Source: Aureimonas fodinaquatilis (GTDB taxonomy: Bacteria; Pseudomonadota; Alphaproteobacteria; Rhizobiales; Rhizobiaceae). Taken from it: a stretch of 64,000 nucleotides of DNA. This document shows, in pieces, positions 45,644 through 62,896 of this stretch (position 1 is its first letter; every line of letters begins with the position of its first letter). The stretch spans positions 62,001 to 126,000 of the forward strand of contig NZ_VTWH01000004.1 in NCBI RefSeq assembly GCF_008369445.1, read 5' to 3'. Under the pieces are notes generated by a model that saw only the letters and a list, made by a program, of their open reading frames with translations, was not told the origin of the DNA and searched no databases. Both the position numbers and the translations under genes were made by a program.

Positions 45644-48322
45644 TCAGTTTGCATCATCGCAAAGCAACAGACGCATCGGAATTTTCCCTGTAAATGCAGG
45701 CACTTCCGCCCCTGCTTCACTAAGCCCGCCCCCCGTCACCAGAGCGTCATAAATTTTTTTGCGGCGCATCATTTCCGGCAGTTTTACGAAGGTTTTGCAG
45801 GTCTTCTGCAGCCACGGTTCTTCATGTCCACCGAGCAGATCATAGGTCAGGCGCGGGGCAATAGTGATGGCAAAACGGCCCTGATTGTCGTGGCGGGCAA
45901 AGGCAACAAAATTCTCCGCATTTTCACCGGTCACCTCCAAAGGCCTATAGCTCCCGTAGGTGAAGAGTTCCGGCGTGGCGGCACGCGCGGCCATCATGCG
46001 TCGAAGCAACCATGCTTTAACGGCACCGCTGCGCCAATCATCCGGCACGGAGTCACTCGCGGCTGCCATACGATGCGCATAGTCCACCTGACGTCGATTG
46101 TCCGGATCCACCAGGCTGTTGTCGAAAAATTCGGTGCCCTGGTAAATATCCGGAACGCCGGGCGCCGTCATGCGGATGAGGCTCTGCGACAGGCTGGTCA
46201 GTGCCCCGGCGGCAACGAAAGGCTGTGCCTTTTGCCAGAACCGACCCATGAATGTCGCATCGTTCAGCGCCCGCCCGGCAAAATCCTGCAGCGCCTGCTC
46301 ATATTCGGCGTCAGGCGCTGTCCAACTGGTAAATTCCTTTGCCTCCCTCGCCGCCTTTTCCAGAAACACGCCTATCCGGGACAGAATTTGCGCCCGCTCT
46401 TCCCGGCTGGCGGGGTCAAAATCCGCCGGCAGCACTCCCAACAACGACTGATAGAAGGCCCATTCCATCGCGCCGTCAGGAAAACTGTGGCCAGAACGGT
46501 TGTCACCCCTTAGGTCGCGTGCGCATTCTTCAACGATGCCGGCCCATTTTTCCGGTGCCTCGCTCAATGCGTACAGGCGCGCCCTGGCGTCTTCGCCGCG
46601 TTTGGTATCATGGGTGGAAAGTGCCATCAGGCCAAGCGGCTGATCTTCAAGCCGGATTCGCATGTCCTCATGGAAGGCTTGTGCTCCTCCGCCGTAATGT
46701 CCCGGCTCACCACCAACCTCATTCAAGGCCAGAAGCCGGTTCCAGCGGTAAAACACTGTGTCTTCCACCGCCTTGGCCATAATGGCGCCCGTGGTCTGCT
46801 GGAACCGCCGGGTGAAATTCAGCGCTCCGGCAACATCCTTGCCGTCCTCAAAATCCAGTTTCAGCAACCGGCCGATGAAGGCCACCGGCTCGTCCGCTTC
46901 TATTTTTCGCGCGGCCTGAACCTGCGTCACCGCTGCGTCAATCAGCCTGCGGTCCTCATCCGGCACCCCGGCAATACCGGAATAGGTGCGATAGACCGGC
47001 AGGGCAGTTGCCATTTCCAATATGGCGCGTGACAGCGTGTCGGCCCCGAAATCGCGGGTGGACAAGCCGCGCTGCGCAACAGCCAACGCCTCATCACCTA
47101 GAACGGCCATTTCTCCGGCCAGATTGTGGCTGAAAATATAGCGCTTCTGCTTGTCTATCAGCGCATGCAAATCTTCCGGACCACCGGTAAAGTCATCATA
47201 GGCAGCGCTCATTGCCGCTTCTTTGCTGCCATCGACATACAGACCGGCCAGAGCGGTTATGAATTCGTAACCCGTTGTCCCTTCCACCTGCCAGTCTTTG
47301 CGCAAACGCTCTGGCCCGGTCAGGATTTTTTCAACGTGAAGCGTTGCTTTGGGGGCTCCCGCTGCAACAAGTCCCTGACGCAGTTCTGCCAGATAGGCTT
47401 TTGGGTCGGCCACGCCATCCACATGGTCAATGCGCAAACCATCCAGGCGGCCGCTGCGGGCCAGTGAAAACACCAGCCGGTGGCTATCGCGGAAAACCCG
47501 GCGTATCTCCTGTCGAACACCAATCAGATCGGCAATCTCGAAAAACCGGCGGTACGAAAGCTTTTCGCGAGCCAGCCGCCACCACGCCAGCCGCCAGTTC
47601 TGCGCCTCATGCAGATTGTGAAGGGCAGCCTTATCCGCATTCAAGGCAGCGATCGCCTGATGCAGCGCATCGACAAACTGGGGATCACGCATAAAATCGG
47701 CGAGTTGTTCGGCCAGGTCGGCGACGTCTGCCGGCGTAGCGCCCGCATACAGCCGCACCATCTGGTCCTTGTCTGCGTGTTGCATCAAGCCGAAAATATC
47801 CGGCAGAGTTCGCGGGTCTAGAGGCAGCGTGTAATCCGAGGCAGAAAACCGGATGTCTTGCCGCTCGTCATCCAGAACGATGCTCAGATCACCGGCCTCC
47901 AAAGCATCGCCATAAGGCTGTGCCAGAACTGGAATGAGGATCTTCTGTGCATTGGCAGAAATATCGAATGCTTCGGCGTGGCGGCTGTCTGCTCCCCAGC
48001 GCAGAACATCCTCCCACCAGGCATTGGCAGCGGATACGCCCATGTGATTGGGCACAAAATCCAGAATCAGCCCAAGCCCCGCCTCAATCAGCGCATCGCT
48101 GAAGCGCAGAAACCCGTCATCACCGCCCAGCTCCGGATCAAAGCGGTTGTAATCCACCACATCATAACCATGAGTGGAGCCTGGCGTGGCCGCAAACAGC
48201 GGCGAGGCATAGACATGACTGACGCCAAGTGCCTTGAGGTAAGGCACGATTGCTACTGCCTCATCAAAGCCGAACCCTTCACGGAACTGCAATCGATAGG
48301 TGGCGCTCAAAGCTCTGGTCAC
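45644..48322 (-). CDS. treY: Malto-oligosyltrehalose synthase
   Basis: An 892-residue GH13 enzyme that turns the reducing-end alpha-1,4 linkage of malto-oligosaccharides into an alpha,alpha-1,1 linkage. It starts ALSATYRLQFREGFGFDEAV, has the TreY markers HVYASPLFAATPGSTHGYD and LILDFVPNHMGVS, the catalytic region LDGLRIDHVDGVADPKAY and LHVEKILTGPERLR, and LSTHDTKRGEDARARLY. The GTG start overlaps the malQ stop by four bases (GTGA). With treZ it forms the two-step route from glycogen or maltodextrin to trehalose, an osmolyte and stress protectant. Confidence 0.95.
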   Translation of the reverse strand: MTRALSATYRLQFREGFGFDEAVAIVPYLKALGVSHVYASPLFAATPGSTHGYDVVDYNRFDPELGGDDGFLRFSDALIEAGLGLILDFVPNHMGVSAANAWWEDVLRWGADSRHAEAFDISANAQKILIPVLAQPYGDALEAGDLSIVLDDERQDIRFSASDYTLPLDPRTLPDIFGLMQHADKDQMVRLYAGATPADVADLAEQLADFMRDPQFVDALHQAIAALNADKAALHNLHEAQNWRLAWWRLAREKLSYRRFFEIADLIGVRQEIRRVFRDSHRLVFSLARSGRLDGLRIDHVDGVADPKAYLAELRQGLVAAGAPKATLHVEKILTGPERLRKDWQVEGTTGYEFITALAGLYVDGSKEAAMSAAYDDFTGGPEDLHALIDKQKRYIFSHNLAGEMAVLGDEALAVAQRGLSTRDFGADTLSRAILEMATALPVYRTYSGIAGVPDEDRRLIDAAVTQVQAARKIEADEPVAFIGRLLKLDFEDGKDVAGALNFTRRFQQTTGAIMAKAVEDTVFYRWNRLLALNEVGGEPGHYGGGAQAFHEDMRIRLEDQPLGLMALSTHDTKRGEDARARLYALSEAPEKWAGIVEECARDLRGDNRSGHSFPDGAMEWAFYQSLLGVLPADFDPASREERAQILSRIGVFLEKAAREAKEFTSWTAPDAEYEQALQDFAGRALNDATFMGRFWQKAQPFVAAGALTSLSQSLIRMTAPGVPDIYQGTEFFDNSLVDPDNRRQVDYAHRMAAASDSVPDDWRSGAVKAWLLRRMMAARAATPELFTYGSYRPLEVTGENAENFVAFARHDNQGRFAITIAPRLTYDLLGGHEEPWLQKTCKTFVKLPEMMRRKKIYDALVTGGGLSEAGAEVPAFTGKIPMRLLLCDDAN

Positions 48323-50154
48323 AGGGGTCGTTCCTCACGCATTGCAGCGGCTATCGCGGTGAATTCCGGATTTCTCTCTAACTCGTCCACCGGCACGCGG
48401 TTGCGAATGCGCCAGTTTGGATAGGCATCTGTGGTGCCGGGCAGATTGGCTTGCCGCTGCTCCAGAACCAGATCGTCCAGTTGTACGGCCACAAGGCAGG
48501 ACGCCGTGCGTGCCATAAAGCGATGCACAGCAATTGCCAGATCCGGCGGCAGTTGCTCCGGCAGGCCGCTGCCATCATTCAAAGGGGCGTGCAGTGCTTC
48601 CGGCAGCAAGCCCTCAACCCGCAGGGCGTGCAGCAAAGCGCGGCGGTCATTGTCCCGCTCGGCCCAGTCACGCTTTGTGGCCTCTTCATCCTGACGGCCG
48701 GTGTCAAACCGAAGCTCAACGTCCCGGCCCTGCCACCAGCCAGCCAGTGTTGCCAGATCATGAGTGGAAATGCAGGCCAGCGAGGCAGTCGGGTAATGGT
48801 CCGGCGGGAAAAACCCTTCCCACATGCGCTTTTCAAAATACAAAACACGATAGGACAGGATGTTCACATCCGCCATGACCTCACGAAACCCGTCAGGCAC
48901 GGTGCCAAGGTCTTCGCCAATCACCATGCAGCCATGCGTCTGCGATGCGCGGGCAACAGCATCCACCATGTCTCCCAGCGGGTAGCGCACATAGCCACCA
49001 TCGGCAGCGAAATAGCCCTCCGCCACCCACCACAACCGTGAAAGGCCCATGACGTGATCTATGCGAACCGCACCAGCATGGCGCATCAATGCATTGCACA
49101 TCTGTTCAAGCGGCTGAAATTGCCGAGCTGCCAGCGCTTCGGGCGACAGCGGAGCAAGACCCCAGTCCTGTCCCAAAGTGTTGAACATATCGGGTGGGGA
49201 GCCGACGCGAGCGGTCGGCACAGTCACCTCCGGGTCAGCCCATGTTTCTGCCCCATCGGGTGATACGCCTACGGCAATGTCGAGATAAAGGCCGATTGGC
49301 ATGCCTGCCGCCAAAGCCCGCTGCTGTGCCGCCTTCAATTGCGCATCAGCCACAAATTGCAGCCAGCAGTGAAACTGCACCGCGTTTGCGTGGTCCTGAG
49401 CAAAGGTTGCAACCACCGCGCTGCGCGAGTGTTGCAACGGCTCGGGCCAGCCGTGCCACCCTGCGGAACCACCAGCGGCGACGGAGTAGGCCGAAATTGC
49501 CTCAAAAAGTGCAAAATCGGCCAGCGCGTCGCCGCCTGCATCATAGAAGGCGTCATATGCCGGGCCTTGCGGATTTGTCTGATCAAAGATTGTCTGCAGA
49601 ACTTGCAGTTTCGCGCGCCCGGTTCTGGTGTAATCGATCAATTCACTGTCCAGATCGTCCAGCGCGGCCGGGTCGTCCGCGCGAAGCTTGCGCAGTGCCT
49701 CTTCCCAACCGGGCAATTGATCGATGGCAATATACATCGGGTTCAAAAAGCGGCGGGTAGAGGGTGAATACGGGCTGTAATGGCCGGGATTGGCAAAAAA
49801 CAAGGCGTGCAATGGGCTGACACCCAGAAACCCCGCACCCGCGTGCGCAGCAATCTCAGCCAGCCTGGCAAGATCCTCGAAGTCTCCGACGCCAATGCTG
49901 CGGGCAGATCGCAGCGCGTAAATCTGGCAGGAAATGCCCCAGTATCTTTTCGCTTCCGGGGCAATGCAGCTCACCTCTGGCACCTGGCGAAGGCGTGAAC
50001 TTTCACCCCATTCCGGCGCATCCCCGTTCACCCCCATGGCCTTGAGCAAAGATCGCATGGCCATTTCGCCCAGCACCCGCTCTTCCCCCGTTTCCGAACG
50101 ATAGCGCGTTTGAATGCCGTGGCTGACTGCAAGTGCCTCAAGATCAGAGTTCAT
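48319..50154 (-). CDS. malQ: 4-alpha-glucanotransferase (amylomaltase)
   Basis: A 611-residue GH77 enzyme. Visible family elements are YWGISCQIYALRSARSIGVG, DFEDLARLAEIAAHAGAGFL, the nucleophile region AGAVRIDHVMGLSRLWWV, the acid/base segment CMVIGEDLGTVPDGFREVM and ISTHDLATLAGWWQG. It transfers glucan segments between malto-oligosaccharides, recycling short chains that TreY and TreZ cannot use. It overlaps treZ and treY by four bases on each side, so the three genes are translated as a coupled unit. Confidence 0.94.
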   Translation of the reverse strand: MNSDLEALAVSHGIQTRYRSETGEERVLGEMAMRSLLKAMGVNGDAPEWGESSRLRQVPEVSCIAPEAKRYWGISCQIYALRSARSIGVGDFEDLARLAEIAAHAGAGFLGVSPLHALFFANPGHYSPYSPSTRRFLNPMYIAIDQLPGWEEALRKLRADDPAALDDLDSELIDYTRTGRAKLQVLQTIFDQTNPQGPAYDAFYDAGGDALADFALFEAISAYSVAAGGSAGWHGWPEPLQHSRSAVVATFAQDHANAVQFHCWLQFVADAQLKAAQQRALAAGMPIGLYLDIAVGVSPDGAETWADPEVTVPTARVGSPPDMFNTLGQDWGLAPLSPEALAARQFQPLEQMCNALMRHAGAVRIDHVMGLSRLWWVAEGYFAADGGYVRYPLGDMVDAVARASQTHGCMVIGEDLGTVPDGFREVMADVNILSYRVLYFEKRMWEGFFPPDHYPTASLACISTHDLATLAGWWQGRDVELRFDTGRQDEEATKRDWAERDNDRRALLHALRVEGLLPEALHAPLNDGSGLPEQLPPDLAIAVHRFMARTASCLVAVQLDDLVLEQRQANLPGTTDAYPNWRIRNRVPVDELERNPEFTAIAAAMREERPL

Positions 50155-52016
50155 TCCGGCAGCCCCTCGGTCAAATCATGCTTGCTGAGTATGAAAGCAA
50201 CACTGTAGCCCTGCACAAGGCCCAGTTGTAGATTGTCAATCGTTTCGCGATGGCTGCCATAGACCGGGGTGGAATCGGCAACCAGATGCGCCTGAAACTC
50301 TTGTCCGATTTCCCAGTCATCGTCTGAAAGATTGGCAAAGCAATGGTAGAAGACGTCCTTGCTCAATTGCCAGGAAACAACAAAGGATCTGCCCTGAACC
50401 AGTGCGGCACCGCAGTTTCCTGGCGCTTCGGCAAGCAGGTCAAACAGAAATTCGCGCCGCGCTGCCAGAAGTTCCTGCGTAACCTGCATGCGTCGGCGAT
50501 TGACAGCACGGTCCAGCAACGACCAGTCAAGCCGCGAAGCCAGAAATGTTGTTTCGGAATTGGGGTCGGGAAAAACATCCTGAGCCCGAGGGTCCTCAAA
50601 GGCTTTGAAATATTTGAATTCGGCCTTGCGACCGCGTGAAACTGCAGCACCCAGTTCACCATCCAGATTGGTGAAGTAGCAGAACGGATTGCACTCGCCA
50701 AATTCATCACCTTGAAACATCAAAGGAATTTGCGGCGAAAGCAGCAAAATGGCTTGCAGGCAATCATAGGCGCGAGCCGATGCAAGATCGCGCAATCTTT
50801 CACCGAAAGCCCGATTGCCGATCTGGTCATGGTTCTGCAAAAAATTGACAAAGGCTGTCGGCGGCAGGTGTTCGGAAGTTTCGCCGACCAGGCGTCCGCG
50901 ATGCTGCGAATGCTCGCCTTGATACACAAAGCCGCTGGCCAGCGCTTTTGCCAGTTGCTCAACACCCACAGGATCATAGTCCTGATAGTAGCCCTCCTGC
51001 TCATAAGTGGTCAGCACATGGGCAGCATGGTGAAAATCATCGTTCCACTCGCCGCTGACCAGAGGAATAGGTGCCTGGCCCTTTCGCTCGATAAAGCGCG
51101 TGATATTGCGGGCATCCTCGGATGTCAGATGCACATGCCGGTCGGTTATGGTGGCGCGAACCCGGGCTGCCAGTTCCTCCACCAAAGGCAGTTCGCTGGC
51201 GTCGATGATGGAATCGATGGCATCCAGCCGCAGGCCATCCAGCCTGAATTCCTCCAGCCAGTATAGCGCATTATCGATCATGAAATTGCGCACCGGCTGC
51301 TCATCATAGGCAATGGCCGGCCCCCATGGGGTGTGCACTTCTTCGTGGAAAAAGTCCGGCAAATAAGTGGGAATGTAGTTTCCGTCGGGGCCAAAGTGAT
51401 TGTACACGACGTCCAGAAACACCGTAAGGCCGCGCTCATGCGCTGCATCCACCAACCGCTTCAAACCATCATAACCACCATAAATGCCGTGCGGACAATA
51501 CAGCAGCACGCCATCATAACCCCAGCCACGATGTCCACCAAACTCTGCCACCGGCATCAGCTCGATGGCGGTTATGCCGCAATCCCGCAGATGATCGAGA
51601 TGGCTTATCGCAGCATCAAATGTGCCTTCCCGGGTGAAGGTGCCGACATGCATTTCATAGAACACGCATTCATGCCAAGGACGCCCGCGCCAGTCCGTTT
51701 TTCGCCATTCATAGGCATGTGGGTCAACCAGTCTGGAGCGGCCATGCACGTCAAACATCTGACGGCGAGATGCCGGGTCCGGCACTGTTCTGCCGCCATT
51801 CACGGAAAAGCCATAGGCTCCACCCAAAGGCACAGAATCGGTCGTCAGACGCCACCAGCCGGCATCATCACGCGTCATCGGCAGGCGCAGAGCGTCTTCG
51901 ATCTCGCCTGCCATCAGTTCTACCTGTTCGGCATGTGGCGCCCAAAGCCTGAACTGCGCGCCGCCATCAACGACTTCCGGTCCCCAACTGGTCGGAAAAC
52001 TGAAACGGTTTTGCAT
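50151..52016 (-). CDS. treZ: Malto-oligosyltrehalose trehalohydrolase
   Basis: A 621-residue GH13 enzyme from the ATG at 52016, which has AGGA five bases upstream; the frame is open for 20 more codons but without support. The N-terminal carbohydrate-binding E-set domain (GAQFRLWAPHAEQVELMAGE) precedes the barrel: FLDVVYNHFGPDGNYIPTY, LRLDAIDSIIDASELPLVEE with the nucleophile Asp, PLVSGEWNDDFHHAAH with the acid/base Glu, and FLQNHDQIGNRAFGERL. It releases free trehalose from maltooligosyl-trehalose made by TreY. It is the first gene of treZ-malQ-treY; the zinc-peptidase gene ends 10 bases upstream, so transcription may begin there. Confidence 0.95.
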   Translation of the reverse strand: MQNRFSFPTSWGPEVVDGGAQFRLWAPHAEQVELMAGEIEDALRLPMTRDDAGWWRLTTDSVPLGGAYGFSVNGGRTVPDPASRRQMFDVHGRSRLVDPHAYEWRKTDWRGRPWHECVFYEMHVGTFTREGTFDAAISHLDHLRDCGITAIELMPVAEFGGHRGWGYDGVLLYCPHGIYGGYDGLKRLVDAAHERGLTVFLDVVYNHFGPDGNYIPTYLPDFFHEEVHTPWGPAIAYDEQPVRNFMIDNALYWLEEFRLDGLRLDAIDSIIDASELPLVEELAARVRATITDRHVHLTSEDARNITRFIERKGQAPIPLVSGEWNDDFHHAAHVLTTYEQEGYYQDYDPVGVEQLAKALASGFVYQGEHSQHRGRLVGETSEHLPPTAFVNFLQNHDQIGNRAFGERLRDLASARAYDCLQAILLLSPQIPLMFQGDEFGECNPFCYFTNLDGELGAAVSRGRKAEFKYFKAFEDPRAQDVFPDPNSETTFLASRLDWSLLDRAVNRRRMQVTQELLAARREFLFDLLAEAPGNCGAALVQGRSFVVSWQLSKDVFYHCFANLSDDDWEIGQEFQAHLVADSTPVYGSHRETIDNLQLGLVQGYSVAFILSKHDLTEGLPE

Positions 52017-52026
52017 GAAATCCTGC

Positions 52027-53112
52027 CTAATTTGCGATTTGATTCTGGTTACCGACACGGCCGTGGACGAGGTCATGGATAAAACCCAGCTTGCCGATCA
52101 CAACGGGCGACAGCACAAATGGATAGAGATCCTGCAAACCCATTGAACGATTGAAGGTGTTGAGCGCCGCAGAAAGCGCCAGCCACGCTTCCAGAATCTG
52201 ATCGATCGTTGTGCTTTCTGCGAACACGTTGAAATTCAGTTCCGTGGTTAAAAGCTTTTCCCGGTCCAGATGAGGTGAAAGCGTCATTCCCCACGCGCCG
52301 CCCGTTTCCAGCGTGTCGACGATGTGAAGATAATGCGCGAAACTTTCGGCAAAATCTTCCCACGGGTGTGCACCGGCATAGGATGAAACAAAATGGTCCT
52401 GCCAATCCATGTCAGGCCCATTGGCATAGTGGTTCTGCAACGCCTCGCCATAGTCCAGTGTGTCGTCACCAAACACCGCCCGGCACTGTGACAACAGGTC
52501 CTTGTCCCGCACCAGCCTGTCCCAGTACCAATGGCCGATTTCATGGCGGAAATGGCCCAGCAGTGTTCGATAGGGCTCACCCATTGCCGCACGGCGGCTC
52601 TCGCGCTCAGCATCATCAGCCTCGGCCAGCGCAATAGTGATGAGGCCGCTGTTATGGCCAGTCATCACAGGCTCATCCTCCACCATGTCATCCTGCAGAA
52701 AGTCAAAAGCCAGCCCCTCCGGCCCATCGGACCAGGCGTAAAGCGGCAGTCGCAAACGCAACAGCGTGTAGATCAGACGCTGTTTGGCAAATTCAAGCTT
52801 TTGCCACGGTGCCATATTTTCCGGCACCGAAAGGTTTGGCACGATGCGGTTGAACTTTGAGGCAAGCGAAAGGATTTCCGGGCTTTGAGCAGGAATGAGC
52901 CAATTGCACACGCCATAGCGATAGTTATCGCAATATTTCCAATGATCAGGAGCAGTGTACCGCCCGACTGATACGAAATATTCGCCGTCCGGCTCAAGTG
53001 CCAGAATGCGGTTTGACTGCGGTTCATAACCCAGTGCGTGGCCGCAACGCTCGCAGACTACGTTCTGGAAATACACAACCTGATTGCAGGATGGACAGGA
53101 AAAAAGCTTCAT
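52027..53112 (-). CDS. Zinc-ribbon plus putative zinc metallopeptidase
   Basis: A 361-residue protein with an N-terminal zinc ribbon ([20 protein letters not shown] and CGHALGY, two C-x2-C pairs) followed by a peptidase-like domain whose metal site is [15 protein letters not shown] (HExxH); the third ligand may be in [19 protein letters not shown]. This matches the zinc-ribbon/Peptidase_Mx family. No signal peptide is seen. It is divergent from the transglutaminase-DUF2126 gene with 119 bases between and belongs to the same conserved neighbourhood in my judgement. Its substrate is unknown; it may process what the transglutaminase and ATP-grasp genes make. Confidence 0.85.
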
Positions 53113-53231
53113 TCACCGGAACTCCAATTCCGCAAAACCGTATTCGCTGCATTGCAAATGCTTGTGACGCTGAATTGTTCAGTTATGTTTGCAGAAGATT
53201 TTTCTCCGATCTGAAGGTGGTTGTCGCGCCT

Positions 53232-56200
53232 ATGTCCATTCTTGCCGCTCTCCACCATGTTACGCATTACAAATACGACAGGCCGGTGTCGCTTGGGCCC
53301 CAAACCATCAAGCTGCGCCCGGCCCCGCACTCACGCACACGGGTCAGCGCCTACAGTCTGAAGATTCTGCCGGAAAACCATTTCATCAACTGGCAGCAGG
53401 ATCCGTTTGGAAATTATGTTGCCCGGCTGGTTTTTCCGGAAAAAACAACAGAATTTCGGGTGGAAGTGGATCTTCTGGCCGATATGACGGTGTACAATCC
53501 GTTTGATTTTTTCACCGAAGCCTATGCGGAAAAATGGCCCTTTGCCTACGATGCAACGCTGGCGGACGAGCTTGCCCCGTATCTGGCGGCGGAACCAGCG
53601 GGGCCATTGTTCCAGGCGCTGGTGGATGAGACCGACAGAGCGCCCGTTCCGATTATCGATTTTCTGGTGAACACCAACCGCAGGATTGAACAACGGGTCG
53701 ACTACCTCATCCGAATGCAGCCGGGAGTGCAGACGCCGGAAGAAACCTTGCAGGCTGGTTCCGGTTCATGCCGCGATTCTTCCTGGCTGCTGGTGCAGTT
53801 GATGCGACATCTGGGCCTGGCGGCTCGCTTCGTGTCGGGCTATCTCATTCAGCTTAAGCCGGACAAGGTGGCTCTGGATGGCCCGGCTGGCACAGACCAT
53901 GATTTCACCGACCTGCATGCCTGGGCAGAAGTCTACATACCGGGCGCTGGCTGGATCGGGCTGGACCCGACATCGGGTCTGTTGACAGGCGAAAGCCATG
54001 TGCCTTTGGCGGCAACGCCGCATTTCAGTTCGGCCGCTCCGATCAGCGGCGGCGTCGATTTTGCCAATGTCGAATTCGAGTTCGACATGCGCGTTTCGCG
54101 CGTGGCTGAGCGCCCTCGCGTATCCATGCCATTTTCACAGGAAAGCTGGGAAGAACTGGACCGGCTGGGCGATGCGGTTGACCGGGAGTTAAAGGCGCAG
54201 GATGTGCGCCTGACCATGGGCGGCGAGCCAACCTTCGTGTCGATTGACGATTTCCAGTCAGCAGAATGGAATGCCGAGGCTACCGGTCCGCAGAAGCAGG
54301 CGCTGGCGGAAGAGCTGATATTGAAGCTGCAGAAGCGGTTTGCCCCTCAGGGCTTCCTGCATTTCGGACAGGGCAAGTGGTATCCCGGTGAAACATTGCC
54401 ACGCTGGACCTATTCGCTCTACTGGCGCAAGGACGGCAGGCCGATCTGGCGCAATGCCGCTCTGATTGCCCGCACGGAAGACCAGGCAAAGCCTGAAATT
54501 GCGCAGGCTGAAGCGCTGATAACAACCATTGCCGCCGGACTGGGAGTGGACCCCGGCAATGCGGTACCCGCATATGAAGACCCGGCCTATTGGCTGGTGC
54601 AGGAGGCGCGACTGCCGGAAAATGTCAGCCCGCAGGACTCCCGGCTGGACGACAAGGAGGCGCGCGCCCGCATGGCGCGGGTGTTCGACAAGGGGCTTGG
54701 GCAACCATCGGGCATGGTCCTTCCGGTTCAGGCCTGGCAAGGGGCCGATATTGCCGGCGGACGGCGCTGGATGTCCGAGCGTTGGCAGACACGGCGTGAA
54801 AAGCTGTTTCTCGCACCCGGCGACAGTGCCGTGGGTTATCGCCTTCCTCTCACCTCATTGTCGCACATCCCGGCCGGGCAGTTTCCCTATGTTCACCCGG
54901 CGGATCCGATGCAGGATTTTGCGGACCTGCCGGAACCGGCAGCACCGGCGCAACGGCAAAAGCAGTTCACTGCCGAAAATCCGCAGGTCTGGACAGCGCC
55001 GGATTTTGCAGATGATGAAGTGTCCGGCGTTGTGCGTACCGCCTTGTCCATCGAACCACGAGATGGGGTTCTGTGCGTTTTCATGCCGCCCGTCAGCAGC
55101 ATGGAGGACTATCTGGATTTGCTGGCAGCGGTGGAAAACGCATCCGAAAAGCTTGACCTGCCGGTGCGGATTGAAGGTTATGCGCCCCCCTTTGACCCAC
55201 GCATCAACGTTATTCGCGTTGCACCCGATCCCGGCGTCATCGAGGTCAATGTTCACCCGGCATCCAGTTGGCGCGAGGCTGTGGATATCACCACCGGTGT
55301 TTATGAAGAAGCACGGCAGACGCGGCTGGGAACAGACAAGTTTCTGATTGATGGCAAACATGCCGGAACGGGCGGCGGCAACCATGTTGTCGTTGGCGGA
55401 GCAACGCCGCATGACAGCCCGTTTCTCCGCCGGCCAGACCTTTTAAAATCGCTGGTCCTTTACTGGCAGCGGCACCCCTCTCTCTCATACCTGTTTTCCG
55501 GCCTGTTCATCGGCCCGACCAGCCAGGCCCCCCGCATGGATGAGGCGCGGCATGACAGCCTTTATGAGCTGGAAATAGCCATGTCCCAGGTGCCACAACC
55601 GGGCACTGGCCCCGCCCCGGCACCATGGCTGGTGGACAGGCTGTTCCGCAATCTGCTGGTGGATGTCACGGGCAATACCCATCGGGCGGAAATCTGCATC
55701 GACAAGCTTTATTCGCCAGATGGCCCCACCGGGCGGCTTGGGCTGGTGGAGTTTCGCGGTTTTGAAATGCCGCCAGACCCGCAAATGTCGCTGGCACAGC
55801 AATTGCTGATCCGCGCTTTGATCTCCTGGTTCTGGAAACAGCCGCAGGAAGGCAAATTTGCCCGCTGGGGCACGACATTGCATGACCGCTTCATGCTGCC
55901 CGCTTTTGTCTGGGAAGATTTCCTGTCAGTGCTGAGCGACCTTCAACAGGCAGGTTACCCGCTGAGGCCCGAGTGGTTTGAGGCACAGGCAGAATTCCGC
56001 TTTCCATTCTGCGGCCGGGTTGAGGCCGACGGAGTGGCGCTGGAACTGCGGCAGGCGCTTGAGCCATGGCATGTCATGGGCGAAACCGGAGCGATTGGCG
56101 GCACAGTCAGGTTCGTCGATTCATCGGTCGAGCGGCTGCAGGTCAAACTTTCCGGCCATGATGCGACCCGCCATGCAGTGGCATGCAACGGCAGGCTGGT

Positions 56201-56555
56201 GCCGCTGACACAGACCCGGGTTGCTGGCGAGTCTGTGGCGGGGGTGCGCTTCAAGGCATGGCAACCGGCCAGCGGCATGCATCCAACCATTCCTGCACAC
56301 GCGCCGCTGCGTTTCGACATTTATGACCTGTGGTCCCGTCGCTCGGTTGGCGGCTGCACCTATCATGTCGCGCATCCGGGCGGGCGCAATTACGACAGTT
56401 TTCCGGTCAATGCCTATGAAGCTGAGGCGCGGCGGCTGTCGCGTTTCGAAAATATTGGCCATACGCCGGGCCATTTTGCACCAAGCCGCGACCTGCCGGA
56501 TCCGGAATTTCCGCTGACGCTGGATTTGCGGCGTCCAGCTTGGCTGGGCGGTTGA
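53232..56555 (+). CDS. Large transglutaminase-like protein with DUF2126 domain
   Basis: A 1107-residue protein from the ATG at 53232; the open frame extends further upstream but no start there fits. Residues ~1-80 are the bacterial transglutaminase N-terminal domain ([20 protein letters not shown]). The transglutaminase core has a complete triad: Cys180 in [12 protein letters not shown], His229 in [12 protein letters not shown] and Asp245 in GLDPTSGL. Residues ~320-1100 form the DUF2126 region ([40 protein letters not shown]). Function is unproven; gene context with ATP-grasp and alpha-E proteins suggests amide-bond formation or cleavage. Two genes follow on the same strand, spaced 1 base and -4 bases. 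Confidence 0.92.
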
Positions 56556-56556
56556 G

Positions 56557-58821
56557 ATGAATGGCTTGTCGTCTGCGGTGTCACCGGCGGAAATGCTGCG
56601 GCATTACCGTCCGGATGGCCATGATGAAATGCTGGCGGCCAATGGTGATCTGAAGCCGCATTACCGGCGGCTGTTCGACCAGCTTTCGGCAATGCAGGCC
56701 GGTGAACTGCCAGGCCGGGTTGCCAGTGCCGCACAATATTTGCAGGAAGCCGGGGTTTACTACCGGGATGTCGCCGCCAATGGTGAAGCCGTGGCTGCCG
56801 AACACAGCTGGCCGCTGGCATTTCCGCCTTTGATTCTCGACCCGGCAGAATGGACGAAGCTTGAAACCGGCCTGTTGCAACGGGCAACTTTCCTGGAGCG
56901 ACTGCTGGCGGACGTCTATTCCCGCCGCCAGCTCGTGCAGCAGGGCGTTATTCCCGGCAGGATGATTGCCGGCAATAAAGAATTCATGCACCCGCTGGCA
57001 GAACAGGGAACTGGCAAAAATCCGCTTCTGTCCTTCATTGCCATTGACCTTGGCCGCATGACCGATGGACGCTGGCACGTGCTGTCAGACCGCACACAGG
57101 CTCCATCGGGTGCAGGCTTTGCGCTGGAAAACCGGGTGGCCAGCGGCAAGGCATTTCCAGAGCTTGTGCATGGCGGCTATGTGCAGCGGCTGGCCGAGTT
57201 TTTCATCGGCTTTCGCGATGAGCTGCAGCGTGTAAATCAGGCCATGGGTGGGGAAAGCATTGGCGTTCTGACACCGGGGCCAATGAGCGAAACCTATTTC
57301 GAGCACTCCTATCTGGCGCGCTACCTAGCCTTTCAACTGGTGGAAGGCGGCGACCTGTTTGTTCAAAACGACGCCCTTCATGTGCGCACGGTGGAAGGCG
57401 CACGACCGATCTGCGTGTTGTGGCGCAGGCTGGACGCGGACTATGCAGACCCGCTTGAGCTATATTCCGGCTCGCGCATTGGAACGCCGGGCCTGCTGCG
57501 GGCCGTTCGGTCTGGCAGAGTGCACTTTGCCAACGCGCTGGGTGCAGGCATTCTTGAAACGCCGGAACTGCGGGCGTTTCAGCCAGCAATGGCCCGGGCT
57601 CTTCTGGGCGAAGAGCTTCAACTTCCGGTGCGCCATGTCCGAATGGAAGCAGACGGAACAGAGGCGGCGCAGGAGGTTCAACTTTCCACCGCACCAATTT
57701 TTGCCGATGGGCGGCTGGAGCCGCACCCCGTTACTTTGCGGGTGTTTCTGGCTCGGCACGCCGATGGATGGCGGGTCATGCCGGGCGGATTTGCCCGGAT
57801 TGCCGGGGGTCGCGGTCTGGAAGCGGCGGCCATTCGGGCGGGCGGGCATTCCGTTGATGTGTGGATACCGGCGCAGACTGTACAGCCGCCAATCAGCCTG
57901 CTGGCCCCGGTCCGTGATTTCAAGCGCCTGTTGTCCGGTGCCCTGCCCTCACGCGCGGCTGACAATCTGTTCTGGCTTGGGCGCTATACCGAGCGGATGG
58001 AGCAGGCTACCCGGTTGATTCGCCTGCTGCACAGCCGCGCCGCTGATGGCACTGCCGGGGCACTGGAAAGCGAGCTTCAAACGGTTCTTGCATCTTACGG
58101 GATGCAACCGCAAATGCCCGTGCCGGGGCTGCATCAGCTGGCACAGGCCGCCTATGACACAGCCTCCCGCATACGGGAACGGTTTTCGCCTGATGGCTGG
58201 CGGGTTCTCAGCGAAATTCTGTCGCTGCTGGATAAGGCATCGCCGGAAACGGATGCAGAAGATGCAGCCAGACTTGCCAGCCGGATTCTGACCCGGCTGG
58301 CGGGCTTTATCGGGCTGGTGGACGAAAACATGTACCGGCTGAATGGCTGGAAGTTTTTGCAGTGCGGGCGGCGGATAGAGCGAGGGATCACGTCTGCCCG
58401 AACACTGGCCACCCTGGCAGGGCCGGACTTCAGTTCCGGCGCGCTGGATGCAATTCTGGAGCTGGCGGACAGCCGGCTGACCTATCGTCGCCGTTACTCG
58501 GTCGAATTATCGCCACTGGCCGTGCTGGATCTGGCGGTACTGGACCCATTGAACCCACGCTCGATCATGGCAGCGGTGCAGGAACTGGCAGACATCGTGG
58601 AACTGCTGCCCGGTGTGCATGCCGGCGAAACCTTGTCACAGCCCTCGCGGCGCATTGCGCGGCTGGCGGTGCGGCTGCGCACCGCAGATGCCAGAGAGGT
58701 TGACCCGGCATTTCTGCAACGCATTGCAGGCGACCTTGCTGATCTTTCAGAGCTTCTGACCGAACGCTATTTCACGGCCACCAGCATGGGCAAGGCCGCG
58801 CAGGGGCGAATGGTTGAATGA
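56557..58821 (+). CDS. Circularly permuted ATP-grasp / alpha-E fusion protein
   Basis: A 754-residue fusion. Residues ~60-450 are the circularly permuted ATP-grasp domain (older DUF404/DUF407): SFIAIDLGRMTDGRWHVLSD, RTQAPSGAGFALENRVASGK, GVLTPGPMSETYFEHSYLAR, GTPGLLRAVRSGRVHFANAL. Residues ~460-750 are the helical alpha-E domain (DUF403), starting ALPSRAADNLFWLGRYTERM. In many bacteria these are two separate genes. ATP-grasp ligases activate a carboxylate and join it to an amine, so this is the likely ligase of the cluster. The substrate is unknown. It starts one base after the upstream stop and overlaps the next gene by four bases. Confidence 0.9.
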   Translation: MNGLSSAVSPAEMLRHYRPDGHDEMLAANGDLKPHYRRLFDQLSAMQAGELPGRVASAAQYLQEAGVYYRDVAANGEAVAAEHSWPLAFPPLILDPAEWTKLETGLLQRATFLERLLADVYSRRQLVQQGVIPGRMIAGNKEFMHPLAEQGTGKNPLLSFIAIDLGRMTDGRWHVLSDRTQAPSGAGFALENRVASGKAFPELVHGGYVQRLAEFFIGFRDELQRVNQAMGGESIGVLTPGPMSETYFEHSYLARYLAFQLVEGGDLFVQNDALHVRTVEGARPICVLWRRLDADYADPLELYSGSRIGTPGLLRAVRSGRVHFANALGAGILETPELRAFQPAMARALLGEELQLPVRHVRMEADGTEAAQEVQLSTAPIFADGRLEPHPVTLRVFLARHADGWRVMPGGFARIAGGRGLEAAAIRAGGHSVDVWIPAQTVQPPISLLAPVRDFKRLLSGALPSRAADNLFWLGRYTERMEQATRLIRLLHSRAADGTAGALESELQTVLASYGMQPQMPVPGLHQLAQAAYDTASRIRERFSPDGWRVLSEILSLLDKASPETDAEDAARLASRILTRLAGFIGLVDENMYRLNGWKFLQCGRRIERGITSARTLATLAGPDFSSGALDAILELADSRLTYRRRYSVELSPLAVLDLAVLDPLNPRSIMAAVQELADIVELLPGVHAGETLSQPSRRIARLAVRLRTADAREVDPAFLQRIAGDLADLSELLTERYFTATSMGKAAQGRMVE

Positions 58822-59723
58822 TGCGCTACGATATCCGCCTTGCGATCGATTATGATTACATCTTTGCTGTCAAAGACGCCCGGCATATTCTGCGTGTGGC
58901 CCCTCGTCAGGACAGGGGGCAGATGCTTCACAGCTTTGCCCTCAAACTCCAGCCGCATCCCACTGAACACGCGGTTGAAACATGCTTTTTCGACAACCGC
59001 ACAGAGCATCTGATGCTGCTGGGTGCGCATTCACAATTGTCGGTGGAAATGCTGGCACGGCTGACGGTCGATCGTTCTGTGCCGGACCTGAGCGACACGC
59101 CTGACCCGCTGGTCCTGGCCCGGACCGTACTTGATGTTCGGGAGACCGATGGCAACAGCCCTCTTCACTTCTTATCCGCCAGCCGCATGGTTGCTCCGTT
59201 TGAAAAGGCGGGCAAGTTTGTGCGTGACTGCGGGGAAAGTGGCACCACAGGTGATCTGGCGCTGGCGGTTGCACAACATATCCAGCGTGACTTTGCCTAT
59301 GAGCCGGGTTTCAGCACCATTCATACCTGCGTAGCTGAAACGCTGAGTACAAAACGCGGTGTATGTCAGGACTTTGCGCACCTGATGATTGCCGGTCTGC
59401 GGGAAGTTGGTATTCCGGCGGCCTATGTGTCCGGGTTCCTGCGCACGGACCCGCCGCCCGGCGCGGCGCGTATCGAGGGGGTGGACGCCATGCATGCCTG
59501 GGTAGAGGTGTGGCTTGGGCCACAGTTCGGCTGGGTTGGTTTCGACCCGACAAATGGCTGTCCGGCGGGCAATGGTCACATTGTGGTGGCCATTGGCCGT
59601 GACTATGCGGATGTTGCGCCGGTGGATGGTGTTCTCACCACCACAGGACCGCAAATCGCACGGCATGGTGTGGATGTTGTACCAGAAAACGAGCCTCAGG
59701 CAGCATGGCAGATGCAGCTTTGA
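58818..59723 (+). CDS. Transglutaminase-family protein (cysteine-peptidase-like)
   Basis: A 301-residue protein with the N-terminal bacterial transglutaminase domain and a transglutaminase-like core. The catalytic triad is intact: Cys183 in STKRGVCQDFAHLMIAGLRE, His226 in GVDAMHAWVEVWLG and Asp243 in GFDPTNGC. The conserved end (GRDYADVAPVDGV) is diagnostic of the family. It lacks a signal peptide, so it works in the cytosol. It overlaps the ATP-grasp/alpha-E gene by four bases (ATGA). Such proteins may hydrolyse or transfer amide bonds; no substrate is established from sequence. Confidence 0.91.
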   Translation: MMRYDIRLAIDYDYIFAVKDARHILRVAPRQDRGQMLHSFALKLQPHPTEHAVETCFFDNRTEHLMLLGAHSQLSVEMLARLTVDRSVPDLSDTPDPLVLARTVLDVRETDGNSPLHFLSASRMVAPFEKAGKFVRDCGESGTTGDLALAVAQHIQRDFAYEPGFSTIHTCVAETLSTKRGVCQDFAHLMIAGLREVGIPAAYVSGFLRTDPPPGAARIEGVDAMHAWVEVWLGPQFGWVGFDPTNGCPAGNGHIVVAIGRDYADVAPVDGVLTTTGPQIARHGVDVVPENEPQAAWQMQL

Positions 59724-61639: not shown

Positions 61640-62896
61640 TTGTCAGGATATTTCGCCGGACTGGATTTCGGCACAACAAACTCCACGCTGGCGCTGGCTG
61701 CGCCCGGTGGCGCACCCCGGTTGTTGCCTGTTGAAGGCGACGCACTGACCATTCCGTCGGCGCTGTTTTTTAGCCTGGAAGACGGCGAAACCTATTTTGG
61801 CCGCAAGGCGGTAGCCGAATATGTCGATGGCGCAGAAGGCCGCTTCATGCGAGCGCTGAAAAGCATTCTCGGCACCAGCCTGATGCAGGAAACCACGCTG
61901 GTCGGCCGGGAACGATTGAGCTTTCAGGAGTTGATCGGCAGGTTCTTGCGGCATTTGCGCATTCGGCTGGAAGCGGAAGGGCACATGGCCGACGGAGTGG
62001 TGCTGGGGCGTCCAGTGCATTTTGTCGATGATGATGCCGTGGCAGACCGCGCCGCACAGGACCAGCTTGCCGCTGCCGCGAAAGCTGAGGGCTTCGGCAA
62101 CATCGAGTTTCAATATGAACCGGTGGCAGCAGCCTTGTATTATGAAGCATCGGTGCAGCGGGAAGAGCTGGCACTGGTGGTGGATATTGGCGGCGGCACG
62201 TCTGACTTCACGGTTGTCCGGCTGTCACCGGAGCGCGCATTAAAGGGCAGAAGGGACGAAGATATTCTGTCCTCTTCGGGCGTGCATGTTGGCGGCACGG
62301 ATTTTGATCGCAGGCTGAACATTGCGAAGGTGATGCCATATTTCGGGCTCGGCGTGCCGACCATTGACGGCAAACGGATGATGCCTGTCTGGTATTTCAA
62401 CGACATGGCAACATGGCACCGCATCAATCAGTTATACACGGCGGCTATTGCCCGTGACATTGCCGGCCTGGCAAAGCAGGCAGCCGAGCCGGAAAAGCTG
62501 GCGCGATTTTCGCATCTGCTTCGTCACCGCTCAGGGCATCGGCTGGCCGGTGCAGTCGAGGCTGCAAAAATCGACCTGACCGCGCGGGCCGAGACAGCTT
62601 TGACATTCAGCGAACCAGAGCTGACTATGACGACCACAATCTCCCGCCAGGAATTCGAAGAGGCAACTTCCGAACTCATCACCAGAATTTCCACGGCAAT
62701 TGACGAAGCGCTGTTGCAATCTTCCGTGACTGCTCAGGAAATTCAAACCGTCATTCTTACCGGCGGCGGCGCCGAAGTGCCTGCAGTCAAGGCTGTGGCC
62801 ACAAGTCGCTTTCCAGCAGCGCGCATTGTGCGTTCAGATGCGTTTGGCAGCGTTGGCCTTGGCCTTGCGCTGGATGCGGCAAGGCGTTTTGCCTGA
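61640..62896 (+). CDS. Hsp70-family protein (YegD-like)
   Basis: A 418-residue protein of the Hsp70/actin fold without a substrate-binding domain. It starts with the phosphate-1 motif GYFAGLDFGTTNSTLALA, has the phosphate-2 motif LALVVDIGGGTSDFTVVRLS and the adenosine motif VILTGGGAEVPAVKAVATSR; FQYEPVAAALYYEA corresponds to the connect region. It matches YegD-type chaperone homologues, whose role is unknown. The start is a TTG at 61640, three bases after the lepA stop with only a weak ribosome-binding site, so translation is probably coupled to lepA. Confidence 0.88.
   Translation: MSGYFAGLDFGTTNSTLALAAPGGAPRLLPVEGDALTIPSALFFSLEDGETYFGRKAVAEYVDGAEGRFMRALKSILGTSLMQETTLVGRERLSFQELIGRFLRHLRIRLEAEGHMADGVVLGRPVHFVDDDAVADRAAQDQLAAAAKAEGFGNIEFQYEPVAAALYYEASVQREELALVVDIGGGTSDFTVVRLSPERALKGRRDEDILSSSGVHVGGTDFDRRLNIAKVMPYFGLGVPTIDGKRMMPVWYFNDMATWHRINQLYTAAIARDIAGLAKQAAEPEKLARFSHLLRHRSGHRLAGAVEAAKIDLTARAETALTFSEPELTMTTTISRQEFEEATSELITRISTAIDEALLQSSVTAQEIQTVILTGGGAEVPAVKAVATSRFPAARIVRSDAFGSVGLGLALDAARRFA

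What the first reader, a model, noticed from the sequence alone, without database searches (positions are those of the whole stretch)
52027..59723. Transglutaminase / ATP-grasp / alpha-E / zinc-peptidase locus of unknown product
Seen: three co-directional genes with gaps of 1 and -4 bases, two transglutaminases with intact triads, a ligase-type ATP-grasp fused to alpha-E, and a divergent zinc-ribbon peptidase. Known: similar gene sets have been predicted by comparative genomics to form amide-bond or peptide-tagging systems, but biochemical function is open. Inference: ligase, two cysteine hydrolases/transferases and a metalloprotease look like a complete make-and-break system for a peptide or protein modification.
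Basis: partly seen in the sequence, partly recalled or inferred. Interest (0 to 1): 0.6.

Follow-up and report, generated by a model that had tools for sequence, protein, structure and literature searches.

The report
Amide-ligase operon with dead ATP-grasp
A conserved bacterial gene set that probably joins and cuts amide bonds on a still unknown substrate contains a ligase-shaped protein that has lost its ATP-burning parts, next to a glutamine-synthetase-like enzyme, missed at first reading, that appears to have kept its own.

Summary
Two corrections. (1) Three quarters of gene 1 is DUF2126, a glutamine-synthetase-like amidoligase (1324 bits; best fold match Z 12.8); 17 of 21 tested motif positions are invariant in 127 proteins. 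(2) The "ligase-type" ATP-grasp fused to alpha-E keeps the fold (3N6X, Z 41.9) but not the chemistry: none of 155 fused copies has the ExN magnesium motif and 14 keep the lid lysine, whereas 49 standalone ATP-grasps keep both wherever not cut off. In this species and four congeners (one clade) the ATP lid is deleted, and once more independently, yet the gene is under purifying selection. So DUF2126 is the likelier ATP-driven maker and the fused protein a pseudo-ligase. Its partner is open: all 84 DUF2126 genomes of 299, and 10 with the fused protein but no DUF2126, also carry an intact-type ATP-grasp. The zinc peptidase co-occurs with that ATP-grasp (45 of 46 genomes) and is linked to DUF2126 in six families. 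The system is a known prediction (Iyer 2009, not readable here); my searches found no paper on the pseudo-ligase.

The parts
52027..53112 (-). Zinc-ribbon (CxxC..CxxC) + Peptidase_Mx zincin, HEIGH at residues 190-194, E252/E256 downstream; followed on the same strand by treZ
   Evidence: Pfam PF10005 89.6 bits, PF15887 339.8 bits; both His of HExxH in 36 of 36 and its Glu in 35 of 36 relatives
53113..53231 (.). Divergent intergenic region between the zinc peptidase and the amidoligase operon (119 bases here)
   Evidence: coordinates; regions extracted; promoter not tested
53232..56555 (+). Transglutaminase - DUF2126 fusion, 1107 aa from the ATG at 53232 (longest ORF begins GTG 52998)
   Evidence: Pfam PF08379, PF01841, PF09899; homology starts near the ATG in most congeners
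54060..56531 (+). DUF2126 glutamine-synthetase-like amidoligase domain; E332, K382, E387, E671, N673, H718, E820, E840, R842, E845 (numbered from 53232)
   Evidence: Pfam PF09899 1324 bits; predicted model (pLDDT 74.5) matches glutamine synthetases Z 12.8, YbdK 10.9, PafA 8.8; these residues invariant in 127 of 127
56557..58821 (+). Pseudo-ligase: circularly permuted ATP-grasp fused to Alpha-E, 754 aa
   Evidence: Pfam PF14403, PF04174, PF04168; predicted model pLDDT 86, 3N6X Z 41.9, rmsd 2.6 A over 396 residues
57085..57093 (+). S177-D178-R179 at the place of the E-x-N motif (E-D-N in intact homologues)
57628..57663 (+). Place of the deleted ATP lid (residues 358-369; 3N6X residues 340-406 have no counterpart); low-confidence join in the model (361-372)
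57943..58773 (+). Alpha-E helical domain
   Evidence: Pfam PF04168 192.6 bits, residues 463-739
58818..59723 (+). Second transglutaminase, 301 aa, overlapping the previous gene by 4 bases
   Evidence: Pfam PF01841 76.6 bits, PF08379; triad C183/H226/D243

Best explanation
The operon is a variant of the predicted Anbu / ATP-grasp / alpha-E / transglutaminase amide-bond system in which the ATP-driven step has moved. SHOWN by sequence: DUF2126 keeps an invariant set of acidic and basic motif residues of glutamine-synthetase kind; the fused ATP-grasp has lost the ExN motif, the Lys I take for the linker Lys, the lid Lys (nearly always) and the Gly-rich loop, and in this clade the lid itself; the gene is still under purifying selection; both transglutaminases and the zincin keep their catalytic residues. 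INFERRED: DUF2126 uses ATP to activate a carboxylate and join it to an amine; the pseudo-ATP-grasp/alpha-E protein binds or presents substrate, or scaffolds a ligase, without burning ATP; the transglutaminase attached to DUF2126 and the separate one hydrolyse or transfer the same amide bond; the zinc peptidase is an accessory trimming enzyme. The intact ATP-grasp/alpha-E/Anbu set elsewhere in the same genome probably works on the same or a related product. Product and substrate are unknown; a link to nitrogen supply rests on weak context only.
For: Motif census: fused type E..N in 0 of 140, N in 0 of 140, lid Lys in 12 of 140; standalone type E 43, N 44, Lys 43 of 44, the two misses being copies cut by the edge of the fetched stretch (earlier 101 v 18). 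Type was assigned by best match, not by motif. Five more fused copies from plasmid records, one Acidobacteriota, lack ExN (2 keep the lid Lys) and 4 more standalone copies have all motifs; ten more fused copies, from genomes without DUF2126, lack ExN and lid Lys, and one more standalone copy is intact. A Lys conserved in at least 95% of the standalone type and present in about 1% of the fused is probably the linker Lys. Lid segment: exactly 68 residues in 43 of 44 standalone (the other cut off), 7 to 77 in fused copies not cut, 7-18 in the five-species clade, 7 in one unrelated genome. Tree: the five deletion species are one clade, 96/93. dN/dS of the pseudo-ligase 0.10-0.15 in three deletion-clade pairs; in eight lid-bearing congener pairs the lid (37-56 codons, some dS near or over 1) runs at 0.29-0.60 against 0.07-0.24 for the N-terminal ATP-grasp part of the same pairs. 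DUF2126: 17 of 21 positions invariant in 127 of 127, fold match to glutamine synthetase. Which ATP-grasp residues matter: passages of PMC4431377 and PMC2845819.
Against: No activity of any of these proteins was tested. The fused protein is not tied to DUF2126: ten genomes of the 299 have it, mostly beside the second transglutaminase, with no DUF2126 match, and all ten carry an intact-type ATP-grasp. DUF2126 occurs without the fused protein in 3 of 80 named loci with 10 kb downstream, in L195, L196, L211 and L224 of the 43 stretches, and in the Acidithiobacillus plasmid. 14 of 155 fused copies keep the lid Lys, and L058, L153 and L154 keep a Lys one place off with a Gly-bearing loop, so loss was stepwise and some copies may still bind ATP. 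Divergent ATP-grasps can lose single hallmarks (R2K clade, PMC4431377 passages). Foldseek gave DUF2126 no match below E 0.001 (best YbdK, E 0.01); the fold claim rests on Pfam's name and the VIA second look, on a model with pLDDT 74.5 and poor stretches.
Confidence: 0.52

Rival explanations
1. The pseudo-ATP-grasp is a regulatory or scaffolding partner of the intact ATP-grasp encoded elsewhere (here with alpha-E and Anbu on contig C2), which remains the main ligase; DUF2126 does a separate step.
For: 84 of 84 DUF2126 genomes have an intact-type ATP-grasp by score, against 72 of 215 others (residues checked only where fetched). Ten genomes have the fused protein without DUF2126 and all ten have an intact-type ATP-grasp. 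In 24 of the 43 stretches both ATP-grasp types lie together, as in the Enterobacter roggenkampii plasmid and a Caballeronia plasmid. The C2 locus and ten congener copies have only about 120-305 bases between alpha-E and Anbu, no room for the usual transglutaminase; whether one lies elsewhere was not searched.
Against: Intact ATP-grasp occurs without DUF2126 in 72 of 156 genomes, and most of those show a single match, so it does not need the partner; co-occurrence partly reflects shared ancestry.
Confidence: 0.4
2. The system makes or salvages a small nitrogen compound (a gamma-glutamyl-type amide or peptide) rather than tagging proteins.
For: DUF2126 model also matches gamma-glutamylmethylamide synthetase GmaS, Z 12.2; marine metagenomes tie Bact_transglu_N, DUF403, DUF404 and DUF407 to urea metabolism (PMC3597751 passages); Anbu is up under nitrogen limitation in Pseudomonas putida (as told in PMC6376114 and PMC5666114 passages); ntrC-glnL, an aliphatic amidase and a permease near the Acidithiobacillus caldus set.
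Against: The GmaS match is one among many glutamine synthetases; the window neighbourhood is trehalose genes and lepA, not nitrogen genes.
Confidence: 0.35
3. One reading: the fused ATP-grasp protein is itself the active ligase, with unusual residues standing in for the lost ones.
For: Fold retained; 46 positions conserved in both types; divergent ATP-grasps with a compensating Lys are described (PMC4431377 passages); 14 of 155 keep the lid Lys.
Against: E and N together in 0 of 155; presumed linker Lys in about 1%; whole lid deleted in five species and once independently; lid dN/dS in congeners 1.5 to 4 times that of its flank.
Confidence: 0.08
4. The locus is decaying in this lineage and the lid deletion is a step towards a pseudogene.
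For: The lid segment was already loosely constrained in congeners.
Against: ORFs open; dN/dS 0.08-0.18 for the three operon genes in three deletion-clade pairs; members about 54-60% identical to the window protein, so the deletion is old, and single-origin; neighbours keep their catalytic residues.
Confidence: 0.03

Closest known systems
Anbu operon (Anbu, transglutaminase, circularly permuted ATP-grasp, alpha-E), predicted peptide-ligase system of Iyer et al. 2009
   Same: Same protein families; the window genome has ATP-grasp, alpha-E and Anbu genes on another contig; many DUF2126 stretches of other classes contain the intact ATP-grasp, some Anbu
   Different: Window locus has no Anbu, has DUF2126 and a second transglutaminase, and its ATP-grasp is fused to alpha-E and catalytically stripped
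Glutamine synthetase / glutamate-cysteine ligase fold amidoligases (GlnA, GmaS, YbdK, PafA)
   Same: DUF2126 model aligns, Z 12.8 to 8.8; invariant Glu/Arg/His/Asn set
   Different: About 12% identity; fused to a transglutaminase; extra beta-rich C-terminal part in the model; substrate unknown
3N6X, Methylobacillus flagellatus circularly permuted ATP-grasp (putative glutathionylspermidine synthase)
   Same: Fold, Z 41.9 over 396 residues
   Different: 3N6X has E-D-N and VVKEVQGSGGYGML; the window protein has S-D-R and no lid
Rim and Rlo operons of Pseudomonas (ATP-grasp ligase, aspartic protease, in Rlo an inactive membrane transglutaminase)
   Same: A ligase with proteases, one partner catalytically dead (PMC12239564 passages)
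   Different: Different families; there the transglutaminase is dead and the ATP-grasp the presumed maker, here the reverse
Pup-proteasome system (PafA)
   Same: GS-like ligase fold plus, in 51 of 84 genomes, a proteasome-like Anbu
   Different: No room for a small tag gene inside the locus; Anbu unlinked here; an AAA+ partner was not looked for

Membership tests
Active ATP-grasp ligase | ExN magnesium motif | tested here: not met
   S-D-R in the window; 0 of 155 fused copies have E and N
Active ATP-grasp ligase | Lys on RAGNYA strand 2 and glycine-rich lid loop | tested here: not met
   Lid absent in the window and four congeners; Lys in 14 of 155 fused copies
Active ATP-grasp ligase | ATP-grasp fold | tested here: met
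   3N6X Z 41.9, rmsd 2.6 A, 396 residues, of a predicted model without the lid
Active ATP-grasp ligase | ATP-dependent amide bond formation | not testable with these tools
   needs enzyme assay
GS-like amidoligase (DUF2126, PF09899) | Pfam profile over gathering score | tested here: met
   1324.1 bits against 27
GS-like amidoligase (DUF2126, PF09899) | GS/GCS fold | tested here: met
   VIA Z 12.8 to glutamine synthetases, YbdK 10.9, PafA 8.8; Foldseek best E only 0.01
GS-like amidoligase (DUF2126, PF09899) | conserved catalytic-type residues | tested here: met
   17 of 21 positions invariant in 127 of 127; their roles are inferred, not mapped one to one on a glutamine synthetase
Anbu-type peptide system (Iyer 2009) | ATP-grasp, alpha-E and transglutaminase together | tested here: met
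Anbu-type peptide system (Iyer 2009) | Anbu in the operon | tested here: not met
   absent from the window locus; on contig C2 with an intact ATP-grasp and alpha-E
Transglutaminase-like Cys enzymes | Cys-His-Asp triad | tested here: met
   127 of 127 for gene 1; 143, 143 and 141 of 143 for the best gene-3-like match per stretch
Peptidase_Mx zincin | HExxH plus zinc ribbon | tested here: met
   both His 36 of 36, Glu 35 of 36; ribbon Cys 36, 35, 36, 36 of 36
Pup-proteasome system | small protein tag encoded nearby | tested here: inconclusive
   gaps of 119, 1, -4 and 83 bases leave no room inside the locus; not searched elsewhere

The most novel reading that the evidence does not exclude
A bacterial tagging-and-proteolysis pathway parallel to pupylation: DUF2126 (PafA-fold relative) ligates a tag or amino acid to targets held by an ATP-less pseudo-ligase/alpha-E adaptor, the attached transglutaminase and the zinc peptidase edit the bond, and the separately encoded Anbu, with its own intact ATP-grasp/alpha-E, processes the tagged product; the ATP-burning role has been handed from one ligase superfamily to another while the old one survives as substrate receptor.
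Probability: 0.1. Interest if true: 0.85.

Novelty: new variant of a known kind. Interest (0 to 1): 0.55.

Why it matters
The Anbu/alpha-E/transglutaminase system has been a prediction since 2009; the passages read here report phosphate release from ATP by one Anbu-operon ATP-grasp and no peptidase activity for the Anbu proteins tested (PMC6376114). This work says which protein of the DUF2126 variant should be assayed for ligase activity and which probably should not, offers a natural ATP-dead ligase kept under selection as a handle on what alpha-E/ATP-grasp proteins bind, and ties the zinc peptidase to the set (45 of 46 genomes). It would be a clear case of one ligase fold becoming a pseudoenzyme beside an unrelated ligase fold.

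Tried and rejected
Pseudogene or decay: rejected by dN/dS and open frames. Chance lid loss by misassembly: rejected, five species share it as one clade, and an unrelated genome (L199) has its own. A lost lid encoded elsewhere was not searched for. Iyer 2009 (PMC3268129) could not be read, so whether it already noted inactive ATP-grasps is unknown; my searches found no paper that does. DUF2126 + transglutaminase in one paper: 0 hits. A search for human glutathione synthetase residues gave PMC2845819 only as a useful paper. A search on the zinc peptidase names gave 13 papers, one of use. Mycobacterial relatives recalled as Rv2566-Rv2569c were only looked up by name (one paper, listing seen, not opened); their sequences were not examined. 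NCBIfam gave no hit for the four proteins. A first gene map by longest ORFs was misleading in these GC-rich stretches and was replaced by tblastn. The divergent intergenic region was looked at by eye only. Foldseek is weak for DUF2126. Only Pseudomonadota were sampled evenly; one Acidobacteriota plasmid is the sole outside case. Fisher p-values ignore shared ancestry.

This weakens a strict DUF2126-adaptor role, so I lowered the best explanation from 0.6 to 0.52 and the novel case from 0.12 to 0.10, and raised the partner rival from 0.35 to 0.4.

In one search one of 25 gene-1 positions hit a wrong residue (I416) and is left out; of the 24 left, 3 are the transglutaminase triad and 21 lie in DUF2126; only matches of at least 600 bits entered. 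In one search weak hits (under 60 bits or starting beyond query residue 260) and the 100-base stub L223 were dropped. The window protein itself is one of the 140; one fused copy (L054) lies on a contig too short to show DUF2126.
Full report
WHAT IS THERE. The four genes stand at the stated coordinates: zinc peptidase 52027-53112 on -, then on + 52998-56555, 56557-58821 and 58818-59723. The gaps are +1 and -4. The long gene-1 ORF begins with a GTG inside the zinc peptidase (115-base overlap); most homologues align from about the ATG at 53232, so the real divergent gap is probably 119 bases. Pfam: gene 1 = Bact_transglu_N + Transglut_core + DUF2126 (1324 bits, 'putative amidoligase'); gene 2 = CP_ATPgrasp_2/1 + Alpha-E; gene 3 = Transglut_core + Bact_transglu_N; divergent gene = Zn_ribbon_DZR_6 + Peptidase_Mx. 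Neighbours are treZ, malQ and treY on one side and lepA and an Hsp70-like gene on the other. Aurantimonas and Mangrovicella are the nearest named genera in the gene-1 tree, with Methylopila next, so the host is probably Aureimonas or a like genus (inference; name recalled).

THE MISSED LIGASE. DUF2126 makes up residues 277-1100 or so of the 1107-aa protein. A predicted model (41 sequences, pLDDT 74.5) has no strong Foldseek match (best YbdK, E 0.01), but the VIA second look aligns it to glutamine synthetases (Z 12.8, 254 residues at 4.0 A), GmaS (12.2), YbdK (10.9), plant glutamate-cysteine ligase (9.6) and the Pup ligase PafA (8.8). Of 21 DUF2126 positions tested in 127 proteins 17 are invariant; the other four are N795 (126), E849 (126), H852 (94) and R1018 (121) in the long-ORF numbering. 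The transglutaminase triad of the same protein is invariant as well.

THE STRIPPED ATP-GRASP. The same genome has a second, standalone circularly permuted ATP-grasp on contig C2 (C2:103555-105048), followed by alpha-E and Anbu with no transglutaminase between them. Compared with it and with the solved homologue 3N6X, the window protein has S-D-R instead of E-D-N and lacks the stretch that holds VVKEVHGSGGYGML. PMC4431377 (passages read) lists two Lys, an Asp, the ExN motif and a small-residue loop as the usual ATP-grasp set; PMC2845819 (passages) describes the Lys pair, acidic magnesium ligands and G-loop lid in glutathione synthetases, which the model also resembles. I counted these positions in the copies I fetched: 20 congeners and other order-level genomes, the 80 loci kept by the capped scan of named genomes, 39 of the 84 DUF2126 genomes and plasmid records. 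Fused copies: E and N together in 0 of 140, N in 0 of 140, E in 2, lid Lys in 12 of 140. Standalone copies: E 43, N 44, Lys 43 of 44, both misses being copies cut by the edge of the stretch; 24 of the 44 have Anbu in the same stretch (my count). A Lys that I take for the linker Lys (standalone position 347) is also gone in about 99% of fused copies. Five further fused copies, one from the Acidobacteriota plasmid of Granulicella tundricola, lack ExN as well, two of them keeping the lid Lys; four further standalone copies are intact. Ten more fused copies come from genomes without DUF2126: ExN and lid Lys in none, E alone in one; one more standalone copy is intact. In all: 0 of 155 fused with ExN, 14 of 155 with lid Lys; 49 standalone with both unless cut. 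Of 127 positions conserved in at least 95% of the 44 standalone copies, 47 are lost (under 30%) and 46 kept (at least 90%) in the fused type, so the protein is not drifting freely.

FROM LOST TO DELETED. The lid segment is exactly 68 residues in 43 of 44 standalone copies (the 44th is cut off) but 7-77 in the fused ones that are not cut. It is 18 in the window species and 7 in four congeners (L035-L038), and 7 again in one genome of another class, L199. A gene-1 tree of 27 rows puts the five deletion species in one clade (96/93, 97% of bootstrap trees). In eight pairs of lid-bearing congeners the lid has dN/dS 0.29-0.60 against 0.07-0.24 for the N-terminal ATP-grasp part, 1.5 to 4 times as much, on few codons; after the deletion the whole protein runs at 0.10-0.15 in three pairs. 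A predicted model (44 sequences, pLDDT 86, pTM 0.84) keeps the rest of the fold: 3N6X Z 41.9, 2.6 A over 396 residues, with a low-confidence join at residues 361-372.

LINKAGE AND CO-OCCURRENCE. Of 80 named loci, 76 have the fused protein and 72 also the second transglutaminase downstream; L077 has only 548 bases downstream, while L078, L099 and L144 lack the fused protein despite 10 kb. Of the 43 stretches, 39 have the fused protein (not L195, L196, L211, L224). In the same 299 Pseudomonadota genomes DUF2126 is in 84, an ATP-grasp match in 156, Anbu in 101 and the zinc peptidase in 46. All 84 DUF2126 genomes have an ATP-grasp match with best E at most 2.4e-125, the score range of the intact type; residues were checked only where fetched. 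72 of the 215 others have one. 78 of the 84 have two or more ATP-grasp matches (not G076, G089, G104, G137, G252, G307), and so do ten genomes without DUF2126, in all of which the extra match is the stripped fused protein, beside the second transglutaminase in nine. Anbu is in 51 of 84. The zinc peptidase is in 34 of 84 DUF2126 genomes and 12 of 215 others, and 45 of its 46 genomes carry the ATP-grasp; three of the 46 (G240, G257, G327) are weak fragment matches. By my reading of the match tables it lies within 5 kb of DUF2126 in 10 of the 34 (G000, G068, G090, G135, G183, G191, G202, G207, G265, G311; six families) and next to ATP-grasp or Anbu in four more (G142, G226, G307, G328). In the genus it is divergent and adjacent in all 19 congeners whose contig reaches that far; in named loci in 9 of the 70 with at least 5 kb upstream. 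A Caballeronia plasmid shows the full set in one place: ATP-grasp, alpha-E, zinc peptidase (annotated as such), transglutaminase-DUF2126, fused ATP-grasp, transglutaminase (product names of the record, DUF2126 by my own match).

MECHANISM. Most likely DUF2126 makes the bond and the fused ATP-grasp/alpha-E protein is a pseudo-ligase that holds substrate or partners; transglutaminases and zincin break or transfer. Only the sequence facts are shown; the reactions are inference. That the stripped protein also lives without DUF2126, always with an intact-type ATP-grasp in the genomes seen, keeps open that its real partner is that ATP-grasp. The congeners' Anbu loci have no transglutaminase slot (about 120-305 bases between alpha-E and Anbu in eleven stretches), so the two loci may depend on each other.

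LITERATURE. The general system is a published prediction (Iyer et al. 2009, not held; described in passages of PMC6376114 and PMC5666114). PMC6376114 reports phosphate release from ATP by the Anbu-operon ATP-grasp and no Anbu peptidase activity on the substrates tried (passages). PMC3597751 (passages) ties the domains to urea metabolism in marine metagenomes. PMC3650047 (passages) already predicted the PF10005 family, as DUF2248, to be a zincin. PMC12239564 (passages) gives the Rim/Rlo parallels. PMC10318531 and PMC8407117 (passages) added nothing on DUF2126. No paper calling this ATP-grasp inactive turned up in searches, of which I saw listings and opened the papers named here; absence from this open-licence library is not absence from print.

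Noticed in passing
G000 contig C2, 101559-105048 (L003 7560-11049): Second locus with intact ATP-grasp, alpha-E and Anbu but no transglutaminase; ten congener stretches (L065-L074) show the same three-gene set.
   Followed up: partly
L262-L271 (ten genomes without DUF2126): The stripped fused ATP-grasp/alpha-E protein persists without DUF2126, beside the second transglutaminase in nine of ten stretches; in L271 an intact ATP-grasp and alpha-E are next to it.
   Followed up: partly
L234, Acidithiobacillus caldus plasmid NZ_CP005987.1: Two Anbu-like genes, DUF2126, intact ATP-grasp and alpha-E near ntrC-glnL, an aliphatic amidase and a permease; the transglutaminase part lies apart from DUF2126 with about 1.4 kb between. 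A nitrogen-regulation context.
   Followed up: partly
L225, Enterobacter roggenkampii plasmid NZ_CP116251.1: The set (both ATP-grasp types, alpha-E, transglutaminases, DUF2126) on a 90-kb IncFII plasmid with arsC and an IS6 transposase gene nearby; suggests horizontal acquisition.
   Followed up: no
window 45644-52076: treY, malQ and treZ trehalose-synthesis genes lie directly behind the zinc peptidase on the same strand; treZ and malQ stay beside it in most congeners.
   Followed up: no
window 53113-53231 and congener intergenic regions: A GGTTCC-like string recurs in the divergent intergenic regions of many congeners; possible operator, untested.
   Followed up: no
window 61640-62896: Hsp70-like chaperone of the PRK11678 type after lepA; 257 bits, below the NCBIfam cut-off of 331.
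   Followed up: no
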